Positions 1 through 6,605 of a DNA stretch of 22,244 nucleotides are shown here, piece by piece. The DNA is from a virus. The notes beneath the pieces are model-generated. The model saw only the letters and a list, made by a program, of their open reading frames with translations, did no database searches and was not told the origin of the DNA. The DNA is taken from IMG/VR virus record IMGVR_UViG_3300007236_000073, positions 1-22,244 of that record; one strand, written 5' to 3'. Each line of letters opens with the position of its first letter. The first letter of the stretch is position 1. Position numbers and translations under genes: made by a program.

Positions 1-1
1 T

Positions 2-79
2 AAATGCCCAGAATGCGAGCATGAATATTCACAAGCCTTTACATTGGACATGGTAAGTTTTTTCGATCCCGCCTCCTGA
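2..79 (+). CDS. 26: C-terminal end of a gp26-like baseplate hub protein (partial)
   Basis: Only the last 25 codons lie in the window, open from base 2 to a TGA at 77-79. They encode a CPEC zinc-ribbon-like pair followed by a tail ending FFDPAS. This matches my recollection of the C-terminus of the T4 gp26-type baseplate hub family (T4_baseplate) in marine T4-like phages: a Cys-x2-Cys motif, then a short aromatic end. The next gene begins two bases after the stop and looks like the usual downstream partner, which supports the call. The fragment is short, so the assignment rests on the motif, the ending and the neighbour. Confidence 0.55.
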   Translation, partial: KCPECEHEYSQAFTLDMVSFFDPAS

Positions 80-81
80 CC

Positions 82-294
82 TTGTCCTTTGATGAAATCA
101 GCAAGTGGGTTGATGACATGGAGCGGGAGGCGAACCTAATACGTAAAGAAGGCTTAAAAATGAGCTGGTACATGCGCGGCGGGATGACCTACGAAGATGT
201 CATGAATTTAAGTTTTGGAGAAAGAGAACTAGTTGGTGATCTTATCAAAGACAACTTAGAAACAACTAAAAAATCAAAGATGCCATTTTTCTAA
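82..294 (+). CDS. 51: small baseplate hub assembly protein, gp51-like
   Basis: A 70-residue acidic protein that starts SFDEISKWVDDMEREA and ends ETTKKSKMPFF, with a central WYMRGG motif. This pattern (an amphipathic N-terminal helix, W-Y-M-R-G-G, then an ENLETTKKS-like tail ending PFF) recalls the small protein after gp26 in T4-like marine phages, usually named baseplate hub assembly catalyst gp51. The start is a TTG at 82. No ATG or GTG occurs upstream in frame back to a TGA at 22-24, and the residues right after TTG already fit the family. It is probably translated by coupling from gp26, which stops at 79. Its own stop overlaps the next ATG by one base (TAATG). The family name is from memory and less certain than the coding call. 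Confidence 0.6.
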   Translation: MSFDEISKWVDDMEREANLIRKEGLKMSWYMRGGMTYEDVMNLSFGERELVGDLIKDNLETTKKSKMPFF

Positions 295-801: not shown

Positions 802-1932
802 ATGTTTAGTGTACACCAACACTGGGATCCGCTTAAAGTTTGTATACTAGGAAGAGCATATCCGCCAGAATTTTATTCTTGGATTAAAAATCCTAAAACA
901 CGTTCATTATTTGAACGGATGGCAATCGAAACTGAAGAAGATTTTCAAGCAATTCAAAGAAAACTTGAAGAATTTGGTGTAGAAGTATTGCGTCCTAACT
1001 TGCCCAAATACCAAGGTGTTATCAACGGAAGTTATGTAAGACCTCCAATGACTCCTCGAGACTACACTGTAATGATTGGTAGCGAATTTTACGAATCGTA
1101 TTCATCAGATTTAAGTGCTTGGTATAACAAACTCAAGGACCCAAGTTGGCCTGATTGTTATACTGTTGAAGATTTATTAGCTTTGCCCAACAAAGCAATT
1201 GATGAATTAAAATTTCGTGGAATGGACAAATTTTTAAATCATTATAACTCAGTTAATTGTTACAACGATATTTTTGAACGTATAAAACAAGAAGGCAACA
1301 CAATTAACAACAAAGCACATCCGTTGTTGTCGGGTGCAATGGTTAGTCGCATTGGTAAAGACTTATACTTTGGAACATTTGACACTGAAGATCAAAGTAT
1401 AAAACCGCATTTTGAAAAAATGTTTCCCGACCACAGAATACATGTAGTTGACACCCAAGCACACAGCGATGGATCTTATTGTCCGGTTGCACCTGGGTTG
1501 ATTATTAGTTTAGAAGATGTTGCAAATTACAAAGAATCATTTCCCAACTGGGAAGTTGTATATTTGCCAGATCAGTCATGGGAGGCAGTTAAACCATTTC
1601 TGGATCTCAAAGCTAGAAACTTCGGTAAATGGTGGATACCTGGACACGAATACGATGATGATGTGCTAGAAACTGTTGAAACATGGCTCGACGATTGGGT
1701 TGGATATGTTGAAGAAACTGTTTTTGACGTTAACATGCTTGTTATTGATCCAAAAAATGTTTTAGTGTTTAACTACAATAAAAAAGTCTTTGATGCACTT
1801 GAGCGCCATGGCATAACGCCGCACATTGTTACATTTAGACACCGATTCTTTTGGGACGGTGGAATTCATTGTATTACAACTGATTTGCACAGAGAAGGCT
1901 CAATGAATGACTACTTCCCCGAACGTAGCTAA
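802..1932 (+). CDS. glycine-amidinotransferase-like enzyme, copy 1
   Basis: A 376-residue protein of the guanidino-group-modifying (GME) fold, closest to glycine and inosamine-phosphate amidinotransferases, which move an amidino group from arginine to an amine. Family landmarks are visible in order: WDPLKVCILG near residue 8, a substrate-loop MTPRDYTVMIG near 83, HSDGSYCPVAPG near 221 (the HxD of the catalytic His), and GGIHCITTDLHREG near 353 with the nucleophilic Cys at 357. Aligned from memory to human AGAT, His303 and Cys407 correspond to H221 and C357, but the triad Asp254 falls on S177. A segment of about 45 residues (roughly 103-150) is absent from copy 2. A strong AAGGAG sits six bases before the ATG. 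The family is well supported; the acceptor substrate is unknown, and a deiminase or hydrolase activity is possible. Confidence 0.82.
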   Translation: MFSVHQHWDPLKVCILGRAYPPEFYSWIKNPKTRSLFERMAIETEEDFQAIQRKLEEFGVEVLRPNLPKYQGVINGSYVRPPMTPRDYTVMIGSEFYESYSSDLSAWYNKLKDPSWPDCYTVEDLLALPNKAIDELKFRGMDKFLNHYNSVNCYNDIFERIKQEGNTINNKAHPLLSGAMVSRIGKDLYFGTFDTEDQSIKPHFEKMFPDHRIHVVDTQAHSDGSYCPVAPGLIISLEDVANYKESFPNWEVVYLPDQSWEAVKPFLDLKARNFGKWWIPGHEYDDDVLETVETWLDDWVGYVEETVFDVNMLVIDPKNVLVFNYNKKVFDALERHGITPHIVTFRHRFFWDGGIHCITTDLHREGSMNDYFPERS

Positions 1933-2875
1933 CAACAACATATGGGATAGACTCAAATCTTGCGTGTTAGGAAGTGCTTGGGGTCCGGAGTTTTATGATT
2001 GGATTCCAAGTGTAACTGCAAGAACAGCGTTTGAAAAAATTGCTGTTGAAACTAACGAAGATCTTAATAACTTAAAAACTTGTTTAGAAAAGTTAGGCGT
2101 TCAAGTGTTACGGCCAACACTTCCTCGTAGTTTGAATCGCACACTTATGCCGCCCATCTCTCCAAGAGATCATATGTGTATGTTAGGAAATACACTGTAC
2201 GACATATACAATTTTAGCGAGTTGTATTACAAAGACATTTTTAAGTTTGTTGAACGTCAGGGGTGTAATGTAGTAAAAAGCAACAACACCACACTGTGTG
2301 GATCAATGTTGTATCAATTTGCAGATCAAATTGTTTTTTCGACTTGGGACAAAACGCAAAAAAATACAACTGGAGATTTGTTGGCCAGAAAAACCGGAAA
2401 GCCTGCAAACTGGTATTATTTGCCAGGACACATTGATGGATGGTTTTGTCCAGTAACACCAGGATTAATTGTATCATCATCAGAAGAACACAGGCCAGAA
2501 TTGTTAGATCTGTTTTACAAAACGTATTTTCCAGATTATGAAGTAGTGTATCTTGGCCCTACATTTGAAAATACATACAGTGCAAGTCAATGGAGCAATC
2601 AAAAATGGTATGTTCCTGGCGAAGAAACAAATTTAGATTTTATTAATTCAGTTAATACTTATTTTGTTGACTGGGTAGGTAATATGTCAGAAACAGTTTT
2701 TGAAGCAAACATGATTGTTGTTGATAAAAATAATGTTATTGTTAGTCAATACAACCAAGAATTGTTTAAGAAATTTGAACAATACAACGTTACACCACAT
2801 GTGTGTGAACTCAGACACAAAATGTTTTGGGATTCAGGTGTAAACTGTGCAATAGCAGATTTAGAAAGGGGATAG
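1907..2875 (+). CDS. glycine-amidinotransferase-like enzyme, copy 2
   Basis: A 322-residue paralogue of the preceding gene, overlapping its 3' end by 26 bases in another frame. It keeps the same landmarks: LKSCVLGSAWGPEFY near residue 16, ISPRDHMCMLG near 84, GHIDGWFCPVTPG near 174 with the likely catalytic His at 175, a conserved WVGNMSETVFEANM stretch, and WDSGVNCAIADLERG at the C-terminus with the likely nucleophile C314. The position of AGAT Asp254 is occupied by C131. It lacks the roughly 45-residue insertion of copy 1 and ends soon after the catalytic Cys. The ATG at 1907 is supported because homology with copy 1 starts about ten residues in. Tandem but diverged copies suggest either a heteromeric enzyme or two substrates; both are inferences. 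Confidence 0.8.
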   Translation: MTTSPNVANNNIWDRLKSCVLGSAWGPEFYDWIPSVTARTAFEKIAVETNEDLNNLKTCLEKLGVQVLRPTLPRSLNRTLMPPISPRDHMCMLGNTLYDIYNFSELYYKDIFKFVERQGCNVVKSNNTTLCGSMLYQFADQIVFSTWDKTQKNTTGDLLARKTGKPANWYYLPGHIDGWFCPVTPGLIVSSSEEHRPELLDLFYKTYFPDYEVVYLGPTFENTYSASQWSNQKWYVPGEETNLDFINSVNTYFVDWVGNMSETVFEANMIVVDKNNVIVSQYNQELFKKFEQYNVTPHVCELRHKMFWDSGVNCAIADLERG

Positions 2876-3211: not shown

Positions 3212-3229
3212 GAACTACTTCGTAGTTCT
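3211..3229 (+). terminator. hairpin at the end of the plus-strand cassette
   Basis: A perfect 8-bp stem (3211-3218 with 3222-3229) closed by a three-base loop begins on the last base of the preceding stop codon. Only a short TGTTT follows, so it is a poor intrinsic terminator by the usual U-tract rule. It may act as a 3'-end stabiliser. A run of seven T at 3269-3275 lies further on without an adjacent hairpin. A 7-bp pairing between 3234-3240 and 3303-3309 is also possible, so this leader may belong to the structured region that follows. Confidence 0.4.
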
Positions 3230-3321
3230 GTGTTTCGCTTACGCTCACACATTAATATTAGAAATAGATTTTTTTAATTTAAAGCCACAATCAATGATTT
3301 TAAAGCGAAGCGATATTACGT

Positions 3322-3401
3322 ATTATCCAGATAAAGTGGTCACACTTAGCCCGTTGCCGGGCTAAGAAGTCTGTCGCATTATCCGAGTAGCGCAGTCACA
3401 C
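3322..3401 (+). repeat. pair of direct repeats ATTATCC-N10-GTCACAC
   Basis: ATTATCC at 3322-3328 and 3378-3384 is each followed, after exactly ten bases, by GTCACAC (3339-3345 and 3395-3401). The two copies are 56 bases apart, and the ten spacer bases differ. A 9-bp hairpin sits between them. The equal spacing of the two conserved halves suggests a real duplicated element, either a protein-binding site or a repeated RNA motif. I did not notice the paired motif elsewhere in the window. Confidence 0.5.
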
Positions 3402-3741
3402 AACGTTAGATCTATAATGTATTATATATAGTACATAAGGGTTTCAAATGTACTGTATATAATACACAGCGCAGGCGGTTAGCCGGTACCTGCTCGATCC
3501 GTCTTATTCCAACGGCACATTGCATTAGTATACGTTGTCATCTAATGCAATGCTGTAGGCGTTTGTAAAACCCTACATCTTTTTGGCCTATATTAACTCT
3601 ATTCAAACAGCAAAACCGCAGGCATTTTGCGATCGGCGTCCTGTTAAGGATAGTTGCTGAGTGCTTGTTGCCGCAACAAGACTTCCGCACCCTCTCACAG
3701 CAGAAGGGACTTGGGCACACGAAATTGACCTGTGCGAGTCG
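3345..3741 (+). ncRNA. candidate large structured RNA between convergent operons
   Basis: About 400 bases without a credible gene, holding consecutive stems: 9 bp at 3345-3353/3358-3366 with a four-base loop; CTG-CGC/GCG-CAG at 3371-3395; 19 bp at 3418-3436/3448-3466; 8 bp with a bulge at 3471-3493; 11 bp at 3518-3528/3542-3552; 9 bp with a bulge at 3555-3576, followed by a T5 run; a two-part 11-bp helix 3599-3610/3641-3653 enclosing CAAAA/TTTTG (3611-3615/3625-3629); TGCTG/CAGCA (3655-3659/3698-3702) stacked on a 7-bp hairpin at 3664-3680; and a 10-bp bulged hairpin at 3708-3740. The three non-Watson-Crick pairs I find (3429/3455, 3603/3649, 3712/3736) are U-G if the RNA is plus strand but A-C if minus, which favours plus. 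The 3' half is visibly richer in G and C than its surroundings. It ends one base before the convergent gene's stop. It lacks tRNA, tmRNA and group I intron signatures that I can recognise. Boundaries and function are unknown; a multi-site terminator or processing region is the main alternative. Confidence 0.5.
3418..3466 (+). repeat. 19-bp inverted repeat with 11-base loop
   Basis: Bases 3418-3436 pair with 3448-3466 over 19 positions, 18 Watson-Crick and one T-G (3429/3455). The loop is 3437-3447. The arms are almost all A and T. This is the longest stem in the window. It could be a helix of the candidate RNA or, as DNA, a cruciform or binding site. A TATAAT hexamer at 3413-3418 touches its left edge, but I see no matching -35 box. 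Confidence 0.7.
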
Positions 3742-4704
3742 TTAAACAGCTAATTGGTGTTGATTTGGTTCTAGTAAATTATGGAGTTGTTTTGTGTTGA
3801 GAAATTTTTCTAGTTGCCAGGTTTTTAAGTTTAAATTGTGTTTGTATATAAGTGTGTGTTGTATTGCGGCTTCTTGTATGATATCTAGATTAAATCTAGA
3901 TAAATCCATGTCCCAACCTTTAACAATTGCTTCAACAATAGTATCAAAATACCAAACAAATCGCATACGCTCTTTGTGTATATTTTGCCATTTGCGATAA
4001 ACTGAAATCCAGTTATCCCATCGTGACTCGTCGATAGTTAAATCAAGATGATCAAATAAATCTCTAACAGTGTTATCAAAACAATTGAATAAGTCAAAAG
4101 CCTCTAGAAAAAAATGCCCGTTAATGCTCTGAAACTTTGGTTCTATACGTGTAACATAATGAGGTTTAAGATTTAAAGCTAGAAATTCTCTATGATCCCA
4201 TACATCATTAAGTTGTAATTTTTGCCAAACTGCGTTGCTTTCGTTAAAGTAAGTGTCAATGAATTTTTTGTGATGTTCTATTGTTGCCTCTTCAGTATCA
4301 ATTGCTCGTATAGCATACATGCAACTGTATAATGAATGTTTTTGTTGATTTGAAAGTATTACAATTTTAGTGTTGTCCAGTAACTGGACATGTTTTATTG
4401 CCTGTTCAGTGCCTTTGCTAACTTCAGGTGTTTCGCCACGGAAGTTATGAAAATATATAGTATTAAAAGTGCCTGGTTCTGTGTTTTCTATATCCAAAAT
4501 AATTTTGTAAAATTCTTCAAGTGTTTCGGGTTGATTAGCATCAAACCCATGAGCATTGTCTTTGACAATTGGGTTGTCTACTAAAGTTTCGTAACGCTGA
4601 GAATAACAACTGTAATAGTTATCTTTTCCAGACAAATACAATATTGACCAGTTTAAGAAGTGACCTCCTTTGCCAGGATCAGTTATAAAAGCAACCAATG
4701 ACAT
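3742..4704 (-). CDS. sulfotransferase-like phage protein (terminal operon gene)
   Basis: A 320-residue soluble protein. It opens with a hydrophobic strand and a glycine-rich turn, VAFITDPGKGGHFLNW (residues 4-19), in the place of the nucleotide-sulfate-binding loop of sulfotransferase folds. A strand TKIVILSNQQ follows near 113, and a late FDLFNCFDNTVRDLFDHLDL near 208 resembles the DL-(x)n-L--FL-GL helix of that fold. The protein at 10886-11764 has the same architecture, suggesting distant paralogy. Both lie in the gp55-gp46/47 operon. No activity can be assigned: key sulfotransferase residues are not certain, and the link is by layout only. It is the last gene of the minus-strand operon, its stop one base from the structured region. 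Confidence 0.7.
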   Translation of the reverse strand: MSLVAFITDPGKGGHFLNWSILYLSGKDNYYSCYSQRYETLVDNPIVKDNAHGFDANQPETLEEFYKIILDIENTEPGTFNTIYFHNFRGETPEVSKGTEQAIKHVQLLDNTKIVILSNQQKHSLYSCMYAIRAIDTEEATIEHHKKFIDTYFNESNAVWQKLQLNDVWDHREFLALNLKPHYVTRIEPKFQSINGHFFLEAFDLFNCFDNTVRDLFDHLDLTIDESRWDNWISVYRKWQNIHKERMRFVWYFDTIVEAIVKGWDMDLSRFNLDIIQEAAIQHTLIYKHNLNLKTWQLEKFLNTKQLHNLLEPNQHQLAV

Positions 4705-4705
4705 G

Positions 4706-5134
4706 CTATTTGTCCCTCAACCCTTCTCTAAGAATTTTTGAACCGCCTACCCTGACATTTATTATACCGTTGTAATATTCGTCTGTCAAGAGTACACGTC
4801 TATCAAATTGTTCTTTTGCTTCAAGATAGCTAGCAATACCCCTGCTAGCACAAAAATATAATATTTCTCTAGTAAAATTTTCCTCGCCAATCTCTGCAAC
4901 ATCTGCTTTAAGATTGTCACTGCTGCCCCAGTACTCACGCCAATCGCTTTCTTTAGTACCTTTGCGTTTGCGCTTTTTACCTTTTAAAGGAGGCTTACTA
5001 GTTTTAAATTTGGCAAGTTTTTTACCAACATATTTCATGTTGTTTTGATTGTTGGTAATAAGATACACAAATGCTTCGCACCCTTCGGGCAATTCTTCAA
5101 CAATTTTATTATTATAAAGCCAAGGGCTAGGCAT
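4706..5134 (-). CDS. SegE-like GIY-YIG endonuclease family protein
   Basis: A 142-residue protein of the compact phage GIY-YIG type related to T4 SegE. Near the N-terminus, FVYLITNN (22-29) and KYVGKK (34-39) correspond to the two halves of the GIY-YIG motif. A basic stretch KGKKRKRKG (51-59) follows, then SDWREYWGSS (63-72), an FTREIL strand near 87, and SYLEAKEQF (102-110), whose E105 is the expected metal-binding glutamate. Asparagine follows in YYNGII. All catalytic positions look intact, so it may be active as a free-standing homing or group-exclusion endonuclease. It has no intron around it. It starts three bases after the radical SAM gene stops. Confidence 0.8.
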   Translation of the reverse strand: MPSPWLYNNKIVEELPEGCEAFVYLITNNQNNMKYVGKKLAKFKTSKPPLKGKKRKRKGTKESDWREYWGSSDNLKADVAEIGEENFTREILYFCASRGIASYLEAKEQFDRRVLLTDEYYNGIINVRVGGSKILREGLRDK

Positions 5135-5137
5135 GTG

Positions 5138-6166
5138 CTACCACTCTAACGTATGATTTTCATCTAGCAGCTTCTCTTTTGTGCATTTTGATTTGCACTC
5201 AAAACTGCTAAACTCTAAGAACTTAGTAGACCAAAATGTATCTGCTAAGATATCCTCAATTGTTTGTTTGTAAAGATTAAACTGTGTTTTTGCCAAGTTG
5301 TGCCATTCACTGTTGTGTGAGTATCTATTGGCAGTCCAGCAACAAGGATAAAACTCTCCTTGACTATTTAAGAAAACACCTTTATTTCCAATTAAACAAA
5401 TTCCTGAGTGTGTGTTATGTTTAGTTAAATTTTTAGCCCTAGTAGAAAAAATTGTTTTCAACTCTTTGCCCGGGCGCAGCCTATTGGTTATTGGGGTTAA
5501 TACACGTTCAAATCTGTGTCCTTGGGCAACGTATTCACTGCTTGGTTCTAGATCGTCATTGGGATAAGCGTCAGGATAATGACTGTTAAACTTGGTGCTT
5601 TTAGTTAACTGAAACAAGTCAAATCCAAGATCAACACTTTGTCTAAACATTGTTGGAAACAGCTCTTGTTCGTTAAATTTAAAAGCAATTGTATCACGCA
5701 CTAAAAATGTTGTATGGTTAACACTTCTAAATGCTTTTATGCCCTGTACAATACTTTCCCAATTACAGTTAATTCTGTATTTTTGATTGCTTTCCTGATC
5801 CCACCCGTCTAAACTAAAATGTAATTCATCATGTATATCTAATACTCTACCCAAATACTGCCACCAATCAGCAGGCTTGTAGCTTCCGTTGGTGACTATT
5901 ACAATTTGTATTGATGGGTTAAGGGTTTTAAACCAAATACATATTTCAATTAAGTCTTTGCAATATATTGGATCACCGTCATTGCCGCAAAATGTAATTT
6001 TTTTAATTTTTCTAGCAATTGTTTCGCCAATTTGATTTTTAAAAAAATCTAATTTAAGTTGTTTGTTAAGCAAAGATTCGGGCAATTCTGCTCGTGGGCA
6101 TCGTGGGCACTTTAACGTGCAGATACTTGATGGTTCTATATGCCAATGATCAATTGCTAACAACAA
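5138..6166 (-). CDS. radical SAM protein with a SPASM-like C-terminus
   Basis: A 342-residue enzyme. The IEPSSICTLKCPRCPR motif supplies CX3CX2C (C16, C20, C23) for the 4Fe-4S cluster that cleaves S-adenosylmethionine. It is followed by ITFCGNDGDPIYC near 58, comparable to the GGEP glycine-rich element, and the strands IVIVTNG and ELHFSLDG of the partial TIM barrel. The C-terminal ICLIGNKGVFLNSQG, FYPCCW and CKSKC groups suggest an auxiliary-cluster SPASM/twitch domain, as in peptide-modifying enzymes. The start is a TTG at 6166 that overlaps the dCMP deaminase end by 17 bases; a second TTG follows directly. No peptide precursor is evident beside it, so the substrate is unknown. Confidence 0.85.
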   Translation of the reverse strand: MLLAIDHWHIEPSSICTLKCPRCPRAELPESLLNKQLKLDFFKNQIGETIARKIKKITFCGNDGDPIYCKDLIEICIWFKTLNPSIQIVIVTNGSYKPADWWQYLGRVLDIHDELHFSLDGWDQESNQKYRINCNWESIVQGIKAFRSVNHTTFLVRDTIAFKFNEQELFPTMFRQSVDLGFDLFQLTKSTKFNSHYPDAYPNDDLEPSSEYVAQGHRFERVLTPITNRLRPGKELKTIFSTRAKNLTKHNTHSGICLIGNKGVFLNSQGEFYPCCWTANRYSHNSEWHNLAKTQFNLYKQTIEDILADTFWSTKFLEFSSFECKSKCTKEKLLDENHTLEW

Positions 6167-6605
6167 ACTCTACCTGTACGTCAGACATTCGCAAAAACTC
6201 AAGACCACGTGTATCGCGGTATTTGTTTTTGTAATACACAGTAGTGATACCACTTTGATAGATTAGTTTTGCACAATCTATACAAGGTGCATGTGTAATA
6301 AAAATAGTTGCGCCTTCGCCACTTTCAGGGCTACGAGCTAGTTTAGCAATTGCGTTGGTTTCTGCATGCAGCACTTCTGGCTTGGATTTGTACAGTGACG
6401 CATCATAGGGTTTACCCTCATTTGAAAATGTTCCTGTGTATGTTTCACAATCATTATCCCAACCGCTAGGCATACCATTGTAACCAATAGAAATAATGCG
6501 ATCATTTTTTACAACAATTGCTCCTACTTGTAATCTTTTTGCAGAACTAAGTTGTGCAAATCTTTGTGCAACGTCCATGTATGCATTAATAAATTTTTGT
6601 TTCAT
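6150..6605 (-). CDS. cd: deoxycytidylate (dCMP) deaminase
   Basis: A 151-residue zinc enzyme that converts dCMP to dUMP, feeding dTMP synthesis for phage DNA. The zinc site is complete: HAE at 80-82 (His ligand and catalytic Glu) and PCIDC at 107-111 (both Cys ligands). The N-terminal RLQVGAIVVKNDRIISIGYNG segment is typical of the family. The length is slightly under the T4 enzyme. It overlaps the upstream small gene by 20 bases and the downstream radical SAM gene by 17, so translation is likely coupled. Allosteric residues were not assessed. Confidence 0.93.
   Translation of the reverse strand: MKQKFINAYMDVAQRFAQLSSAKRLQVGAIVVKNDRIISIGYNGMPSGWDNDCETYTGTFSNEGKPYDASLYKSKPEVLHAETNAIAKLARSPESGEGATIFITHAPCIDCAKLIYQSGITTVYYKNKYRDTRGLEFLRMSDVQVEFVVSN

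What the first reader, a model, noticed from the sequence alone, without database searches (positions are those of the whole stretch)
3345..3741. Candidate undescribed large structured RNA in a phage genome
Nine or more stems sit head to tail in about 400 bases with no gene, several perfect over 7-19 bp. Some are nested (3599-3610 with 3641-3653 enclosing 3611-3629; 3655-3659 with 3698-3702 stacked on 3664-3680). Every wobble found fits a plus-strand RNA and none a minus-strand one. The 3' part is less AT-rich than the neighbours, as is common for structured RNAs in AT-rich genomes. Large ornate phage RNAs (GOLLD, ROOL) are known, but I cannot tell whether this belongs to any known class.
Basis: partly seen in the sequence, partly recalled or inferred. 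Interest (0 to 1): 0.8.

Follow-up and report, generated by a model that had tools for sequence, protein, structure and literature searches.

The report
Large structured RNA of uncultured phages
The gene-free stretch encodes, on the strand opposite to the one first proposed, a roughly 540-base folded RNA shared by hundreds of uncultured T4-like phages and by phage-satellite-like islands in water bacteria; only its first quarter was known (Polynucleobacter-1 RNA, function unknown), and it carries two short repeats that always change together.

Summary
The stems are real and belong to a conserved RNA on the MINUS strand, about 3749 to 3212, wider than the given interval. Rfam's Polynucleobacter-1 (RF01718, 141 nt, function unknown) matches 3740-3605 (-) at 92 bits; the remaining ~390 nt are in no Rfam family. 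I found relatives in 392 loci, 283 full length, almost all uncultured T4-like phage contigs. In 50 diverse sequences, 49 of 62 proposed pairs show changes on both sides, including two pseudoknots; G-U cells outnumber A-C cells 4:1, fixing the strand. Syntenic phages lacking an Rfam match carry the same 3' domain. The RNA usually starts at the stop codon of a segE-like GIY-YIG gene. Copies also sit in tRNA-Phe-integrated, satellite-like islands of Polynucleobacter. The strongest covariation is not base pairing: two direct repeats (3390-3377, 3334-3321) keep an identical hypervariable core in 293 of 294 loci. Best reading: a stable trans-acting ornate RNA, comparable in kind to GOLLD/ROOL but unrelated in sequence, with twin recognition segments. 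Existence and strand are near certain; the mechanism is inferred (~0.35).

The parts
3212..3749 (-). whole ornate RNA, inferred extent (5' end near 3749, 3' end near 3212)
   Evidence: conserved blocks and helices in 283 full-length homologues; 3' hairpins recur after the RNA; ends inferred, not mapped
3605..3740 (-). 5' domain = Polynucleobacter-1 RNA, RF01718, 92.3 bits (gathering 37)
3670..3749 (-). stem P0: about 3749-3746 with 3673-3670, enclosing the 3735-3731/3719-3715 hairpin; its 5' strand overlaps the last codons of the 320-aa ORF
   Evidence: covarying helices 1 and 2
3608..3659 (-). outer stem 3659-3654 with 3613-3608 around near-invariant UAUCC..GGACG
   Evidence: helices 5-8
3525..3545 (-). 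variable-stem hairpin; its loop (3537-3532) pairs with 3406-3401 (pseudoknot PK2)
   Evidence: helices 9 and 10, 6 of 6 PK2 pairs with double changes, 94.9% paired
3471..3513 (-). most conserved block GGUACCGG..ACCGCC with pseudoknot PK1 (3513-3509 with 3482-3478)
   Evidence: 98.8% paired, covarying UA/CG/GU
3418..3466 (-). 19-bp AU-rich hairpin, a variable insertion at this place
3377..3390 (-). direct repeat R1, CUACUC-GGAUAAUG
   Evidence: identity covariation with R2
3345..3366 (-). hairpin CUUAGCCC..GGGCUAAG between the repeats
   Evidence: helix 14, 96.5% paired
3321..3334 (-). direct repeat R2, UUAUCU-GGAUAAUA
3229..3251 (-). 3' hairpin N5-GAGC-GUAA-GCGAA-N5'
   Evidence: such a hairpin lies within 150 nt after R2 in 216 of 359 loci; background 0.0048 per kb
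3212..3228 (-). terminal hairpin, possible transcription end
   Evidence: sequence; function inferred
4706..5134 (-). segE-like GIY-YIG gene (PF19835), in most relatives the gene directly before the RNA
3742..4704 (-). 320-aa ORF of unknown family, here between the segE-like gene and the RNA

Best explanation
A minus-strand noncoding RNA of about 540 nt in a T4-like phage, read off downstream of the segE-like gene and folding into a compact, pseudoknotted structure that acts in trans rather than as a switch for the next gene. Shown: existence of the conserved fold, strand, extent from the 5' domain through R2, phage and island distribution, co-evolution of R1 and R2 by identity. Inferred: that it is a stable transcript; that R1 and R2 are two exposed copies of one recognition segment that both read the same partner (a nucleic acid or subunit outside this locus), the partner's drift forcing both to change together; that the role lies in the phage cycle (virion assembly or take-over), since satellite-like islands carry it too and capsid-targeting-like genes often sit next to it. 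I hold the ornate-RNA part at about 0.95 and the twin-recognition step at about 0.35.
For: RF01718 hit on minus. 49 of 62 pairs with changes on both sides, 524 such cells against 161 +- 13 shuffled, 90.8% paired against 35-45% when slid; two pseudoknots at 94.9 and 98.8%. Orientation 1411 GU to 355 AC. 392 loci, one copy each. Clade B: same 3' domain at the syntenic site without an Rfam match. R1/R2: top covariation score of all column pairs in both alignments; columns 327/378 change 38 and 38 times, 33 on the same branch, 31 identically; 293 of 294 loci with the ACUCr/AUCUr frame keep the same next 5-mer; also in bacterial chromosomes with quite different cores. Downstream gene on the opposite strand in 165 of 318 loci with the upstream gene co-directional and both flanks seen, so not a leader. 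Capsid-targeting-like N-terminus in 94 of 127 first co-directional downstream ORFs against 36 of 2867 others. Chromosomal copies in tRNA-Phe-flanked islands with integrase.
Against: No expression data. No partner complementary to the repeats found: not in the RNA (own 1, expected 2.7), not within 4 kb (229 against 230.6 +- 13.6), no clear excess in 23 long phage contigs over the reversed control pattern. Identity could also come from an unusual structural contact. Capsid-targeting likeness rests on a short N-terminal motif only, and the window itself has no such gene beside the RNA. Eight sequenced phage records with a segE homologue lack the RNA, so it is not needed by that gene or by T4-like growth in general.
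Confidence: 0.6

Rival explanations
1. RNA-only homo-oligomer, as GOLLD, ROOL and OLE form: many copies join into a ring, cage or dimer, and R1 of one copy lies against R2 of the next, so identity is kept by a like-with-like contact.
For: Size, pseudoknots, phage context and conserved 3' with variable 5' domain resemble GOLLD; in the OLE dimer a symmetric helix of A-A pairs joins chains (PMC12286853).
Against: All four like pairs (A.A, G.G, C.C, U.U) would have to be tolerated in register, which I know of in no RNA helix over 7-8 positions; no 3D evidence.
Confidence: 0.3
2. Cis-regulatory element or riboswitch for a neighbouring gene, as Polynucleobacter-1 was provisionally classed in 2010.
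For: Classed 'probably cis-regulatory'; an integrase gene follows it in the same direction in Polynucleobacter islands.
Against: In the window and in 165 of 318 loci the downstream gene is on the opposite strand; downstream families vary; size and 3' hairpins suggest a complete transcript.
Confidence: 0.1
3. The repeats act at DNA level (recombination core, replication iterons or operators) and the RNA fold is separate.
For: Identical cores in direct orientation are typical of such sites; a tyrosine recombinase lies beside chromosomal copies.
Against: No further exact copies in 39 kb around the islands, whose ends are 45-bp tRNA-Phe repeats instead; R1 and R2 constantly differ at CUC versus UCU; repeats lie only 55 nt apart around a covarying RNA hairpin.
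Confidence: 0.15
4. Two independent RNAs side by side: Polynucleobacter-1 and a second RNA holding R1/R2.
For: No significant Watson-Crick covariation links the two halves; clade B varies the 5' half.
Against: 283 loci have both halves in fixed order and spacing; bacterial islands keep both; clade B has its own conserved 5' block of like size.
Confidence: 0.15
5. Chance hairpins and terminators in AT-rich DNA.
For: Low-GC genome; terminal hairpins exist.
Against: Covariation and homologues.
Confidence: 0.01

Closest known systems
Polynucleobacter-1 RNA (Rfam RF01718; Weinberg et al. 2010, PMC2864571)
   Same: The 5' 136 nt are a full-length match, 92.3 bits
   Different: Family ends at model position 141; the ~390 nt further RNA with the pseudoknots and R1/R2, the phage and satellite-like setting and the clade without an RF01718 match are outside it
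GOLLD RNA
   Same: Large ornate RNA of phages and water metagenomes, conserved 3' and variable 5' region, unknown function (PMC12286853)
   Different: No covariance-model match; no tRNA in the window; about 540 against more than 800 nt in many GOLLD members; R1/R2 not described for GOLLD in the passages read
ROOL RNA
   Same: Phage-borne, multi-pseudoknot, large
   Different: No covariance-model match; different conserved sequence
OLE RNA dimer
   Same: Only precedent I read of for a like-with-like helix (A-A pairs) between RNA chains
   Different: No match; four A-A pairs between chains, not a hypervariable identical core
Nuclease-associated guide RNAs (HEARO/IscB, TnpB) and IS110 bridge RNAs
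   Same: RNA directly beside a nuclease gene; two sequence segments that share a core
   Different: No Rfam match; the segE-like gene is widespread without the RNA; the window has a gene between them; no target found (comparison otherwise from general knowledge)

Membership tests
Polynucleobacter-1 (RF01718) | covariance-model score above gathering score | tested here: met
   92.3 against 37 bits, full model 1-141, minus strand
Polynucleobacter-1 (RF01718) | probable cis-regulatory position (2010 classification) | tested here: not met
   downstream gene on the opposite strand in the window and in 165 of 318 loci
Polynucleobacter-1 (RF01718) | RNA limited to the 141-nt motif | tested here: not met
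   covarying conserved structure continues through R2 and 3' hairpin
GOLLD | match to the Rfam covariance model | tested here: not met
   no hit at gathering or at E up to 5 and 3
GOLLD | RNA-only multimeric cage | not testable with these tools
   needs cryo-EM or native sizing
GOLLD | often near tRNA islands | tested here: not met
   no tRNA in the 22-kb window
ROOL | match to the Rfam covariance model | tested here: not met
Nuclease-associated guide RNA | adjacent RNA-guided nuclease that depends on the RNA | tested here: inconclusive
   segE-like gene directly before the RNA in most loci but present without it in eight sequenced records
Nuclease-associated guide RNA | guide segment matching a target | tested here: inconclusive
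   no complement enriched in the RNA, within 4 kb or in 23 long contigs

The most novel reading that the evidence does not exclude
A new class of large phage RNA in which two direct repeats are held identical by function: a twin-recognition (or self-matching) RNA whose hypervariable code works like an identity tag, shared and diversified between T4-like phages and the satellite-like islands of their hosts.
Probability: 0.35. Interest if true: 0.92.

Novelty: new variant of a known kind. Interest (0 to 1): 0.74.

Why it matters
It turns an orphan 141-nt motif of 2010 into the 5' end of a large ornate RNA found in hundreds of uncultured water phages, gives it a phage and satellite-like setting, and defines a feature (identity covariation of two repeats, as tight as base pairing) that I know of in no RNA family and that can be tested by simple mutation. 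Large ornate phage RNAs have no known function; here the neighbouring genes and the twin repeats give concrete handles.

Tried and rejected
Plus-strand RNA. Known Rfam classes other than RF01718. Named phages and plasmids by blastn with the window and two relatives: no match. R1-R2 antiparallel pairing as RNAalifold drew it: broken by the GCAU-type cores and by identity at both ends, so dropped. Palindromic self-pairing of R2: holds for AUCUAGAU, fails for other cores. Partner search: complement of the core in the RNA, near it and in long contigs; an apparent excess 1.0-1.5 kb upstream proved to be a conserved coding motif (YYL) in the gp46-like gene. Repeats as integration sites of the islands: rejected. 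Gene conversion between repeats: would have to skip the constant CUC/UCU triplet each time; considered unlikely, not tested further. Some first-scan loci (L041, L050, L075, L079, L083, L089, L106, L111) have no core match; most look like chance pattern hits, L083 and L089 may be very distant relatives. My first search pattern fixed ACTATCC..GGACG, so the absence of covariation there was judged only on sets that include unbiased scans. The covariance model R1 of the 3' domain has only 11 pairs, missed the Polynucleobacter copies, and was used for presence only.

Full report
Observation. The interval is rich in stems and free of credible genes. Both strands of 3200-3745 fold better than every shuffle, the minus strand more so. 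In conserved helices the window has G-U pairs that exist only on the minus strand, and over 209 homologues non-Watson-Crick cells are 1411 G-U against 355 A-C in minus orientation.

Identity of the 5' part. Rfam's Polynucleobacter-1 model (RF01718) matches 3740-3605 on the minus strand over its whole length at 92.3 bits; nothing else in the window matches Rfam. The family comes from Weinberg et al. 2010 (PMC2864571), where it is listed as probable RNA, probably cis-regulatory, from Burkholderiales and fresh or estuarine water. The held library has no other paper that names it.

The RNA is far larger. A scan of viral contigs with the most conserved 5' motif gave at least 120 contigs, in most of which the downstream 250 nt are conserved as well. 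Scans seeded in the 3' part, free of the 5' bias, gave many more. A profile search over all loci found 392 with a match, 283 of them full length and none with two copies. The 3' part alone recurs at the syntenic place in relatives found through the neighbouring 320-aa ORF; most of these have no RF01718 match and a different but conserved 5' block. Relaxed Rfam search of such a locus gives nothing credible. A hairpin of the form N5-GAGC-loop-GCGAA-N5' lies within 150 nt after the second repeat in 216 of 359 loci, against a background of 0.0048 per kb. In the window it is 3251-3229, followed by a terminal hairpin 3228-3212. I therefore place the RNA at about 3749 to 3212 minus; the ends are inferred.

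Structure. On 50 diverse sequences a 62-pair structure with two pseudoknots has 90.8% paired cells, against 35-45% when slid by 1-3 columns. 49 pairs show changes on both sides and 524 cells such changes (shuffles 161 +- 13). The structure was derived from related alignments, so the slide control flatters it, and relatedness inflates the shuffle contrast; the number of pairs with double changes is the more robust figure. A tree-based null on 91 and 209 sequences, of my own making after the idea of R-scape, also puts pairs of both halves above the null. Pseudoknot 1 joins 3513-3509 with 3482-3478, pseudoknot 2 the hairpin loop 3537-3532 with 3406-3401.

The strange part. The top-scoring column pair in both alignments is not a base pair. 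Two direct repeats, R1 (..ACUC-r-core) and R2 (..AUCU-r-core), about 55 nt apart around a conserved hairpin, keep the same core. Columns 327 and 378 change 38 times each on the tree, 33 times on the same branch and 31 times in the same way; 331 and 382 change 14 times each, 13 together and alike. Base-paired columns such as 271/289 show the same tightness with complementary changes. Of 294 loci with the ACUCr...AUCUr frame, 293 have the same following 5-mer. Chromosomal copies keep the rule with other cores (AGAGAAAG, AGCGAAAG, AACAAAAG, ACUUAAAGAG), as do divergent phage groups. The CUC/UCU difference between the repeats is itself constant in the main groups. I looked for a partner and found none: no complement in the RNA, none in fixed places within 4 kb, no clear excess in 23 long contigs. 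The repeats are not the integration sites of the islands.

Setting. In most loci the RNA begins at the stop codon of a segE-like GIY-YIG gene (PF19835; median offset -8 nt); in the window a 320-aa ORF without Pfam or PHROG match lies between them. gp46- and gp26-like neighbours mark T4-like phages (by sequence resemblance). In 165 of 318 loci the next gene faces the RNA, so it is not a leader. Where the next ORF is co-directional, 94 of 127 start like the T4 capsid-targeting sequence, against 36 of 2867 other ORFs (likeness by motif, the T4 precedent from general knowledge). Sequenced phages with a segE homologue, including Methylophilales phage Melnitz at 72% identity, lack the RNA. In bacteria it occurs in some Polynucleobacter and a Methylococcaceae bin. 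In Polynucleobacter MWH-HuK1 two copies lie in neighbouring islands bounded by 45-bp repeats of the tRNA-Phe end, with integrases and a protein with the same N-terminal motif. That is the make-up of phage satellites, though mobilisation is not shown.

Mechanism. The common features of its phages and of the islands argue for a trans-acting RNA of the phage cycle. The repeats behave like two copies of one reading segment that must both match the same partner: I rate this about 0.35. A like-with-like contact between copies in an RNA oligomer is the next choice (0.3); OLE gives a small precedent of A-A pairs between chains (PMC12286853). DNA-level sites and a cis element are less likely.

Known or new. 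The 5' domain is a member of RF01718; the whole is not described by it. It resembles GOLLD and ROOL in kind and is not a member of either by model. Novelty: a known motif shown to be the end of a new large ornate RNA with a repeat constraint that is, to my knowledge, without precedent.

Noticed in passing
window 3742-4704 (-): 320-aa ORF without Pfam or PHROG match; 46 viral-contig relatives (29-100% identity); in many it lies on the other side of the RNA
   Followed up: partly
loci with a co-directional gene after the RNA, e.g. L005, L008, L046, L088: Strong enrichment (94 of 127 against 36 of 2867) of T4 capsid-targeting-like N-termini in otherwise unrelated proteins next to the RNA
   Followed up: partly
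L572/L573 (Polynucleobacter MWH-HuK1 392110-422184): Neighbouring tRNA-Phe-integrated islands with integrase, ATPase, DUF6641 and the RNA; look like satellites of T4-like phages
   Followed up: partly
L183 (Polynucleobacter Latsch14-2, 5742-base contig): Small contig with integrase, Fic-like protein, DUF6641 and the RNA, titled with coverage 141; possibly an episomal or excised element
   Followed up: no
window 802-1932 and 1907-2875 (+): Two tandem paralogous ORFs, amidinotransferase-like at a glance; no Pfam match for the second, weak PHROG match of unknown function
   Followed up: no
window 5138-6605 (-): Radical SAM protein (PF04055) overlapping a dCMP-deaminase-like ORF, in the cluster that precedes the segE-like gene
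   Followed up: no
L083, L089: Carry the UAUCC..GGACG motif and faint likeness to the RNA but no profile match; perhaps very distant relatives
   Followed up: no
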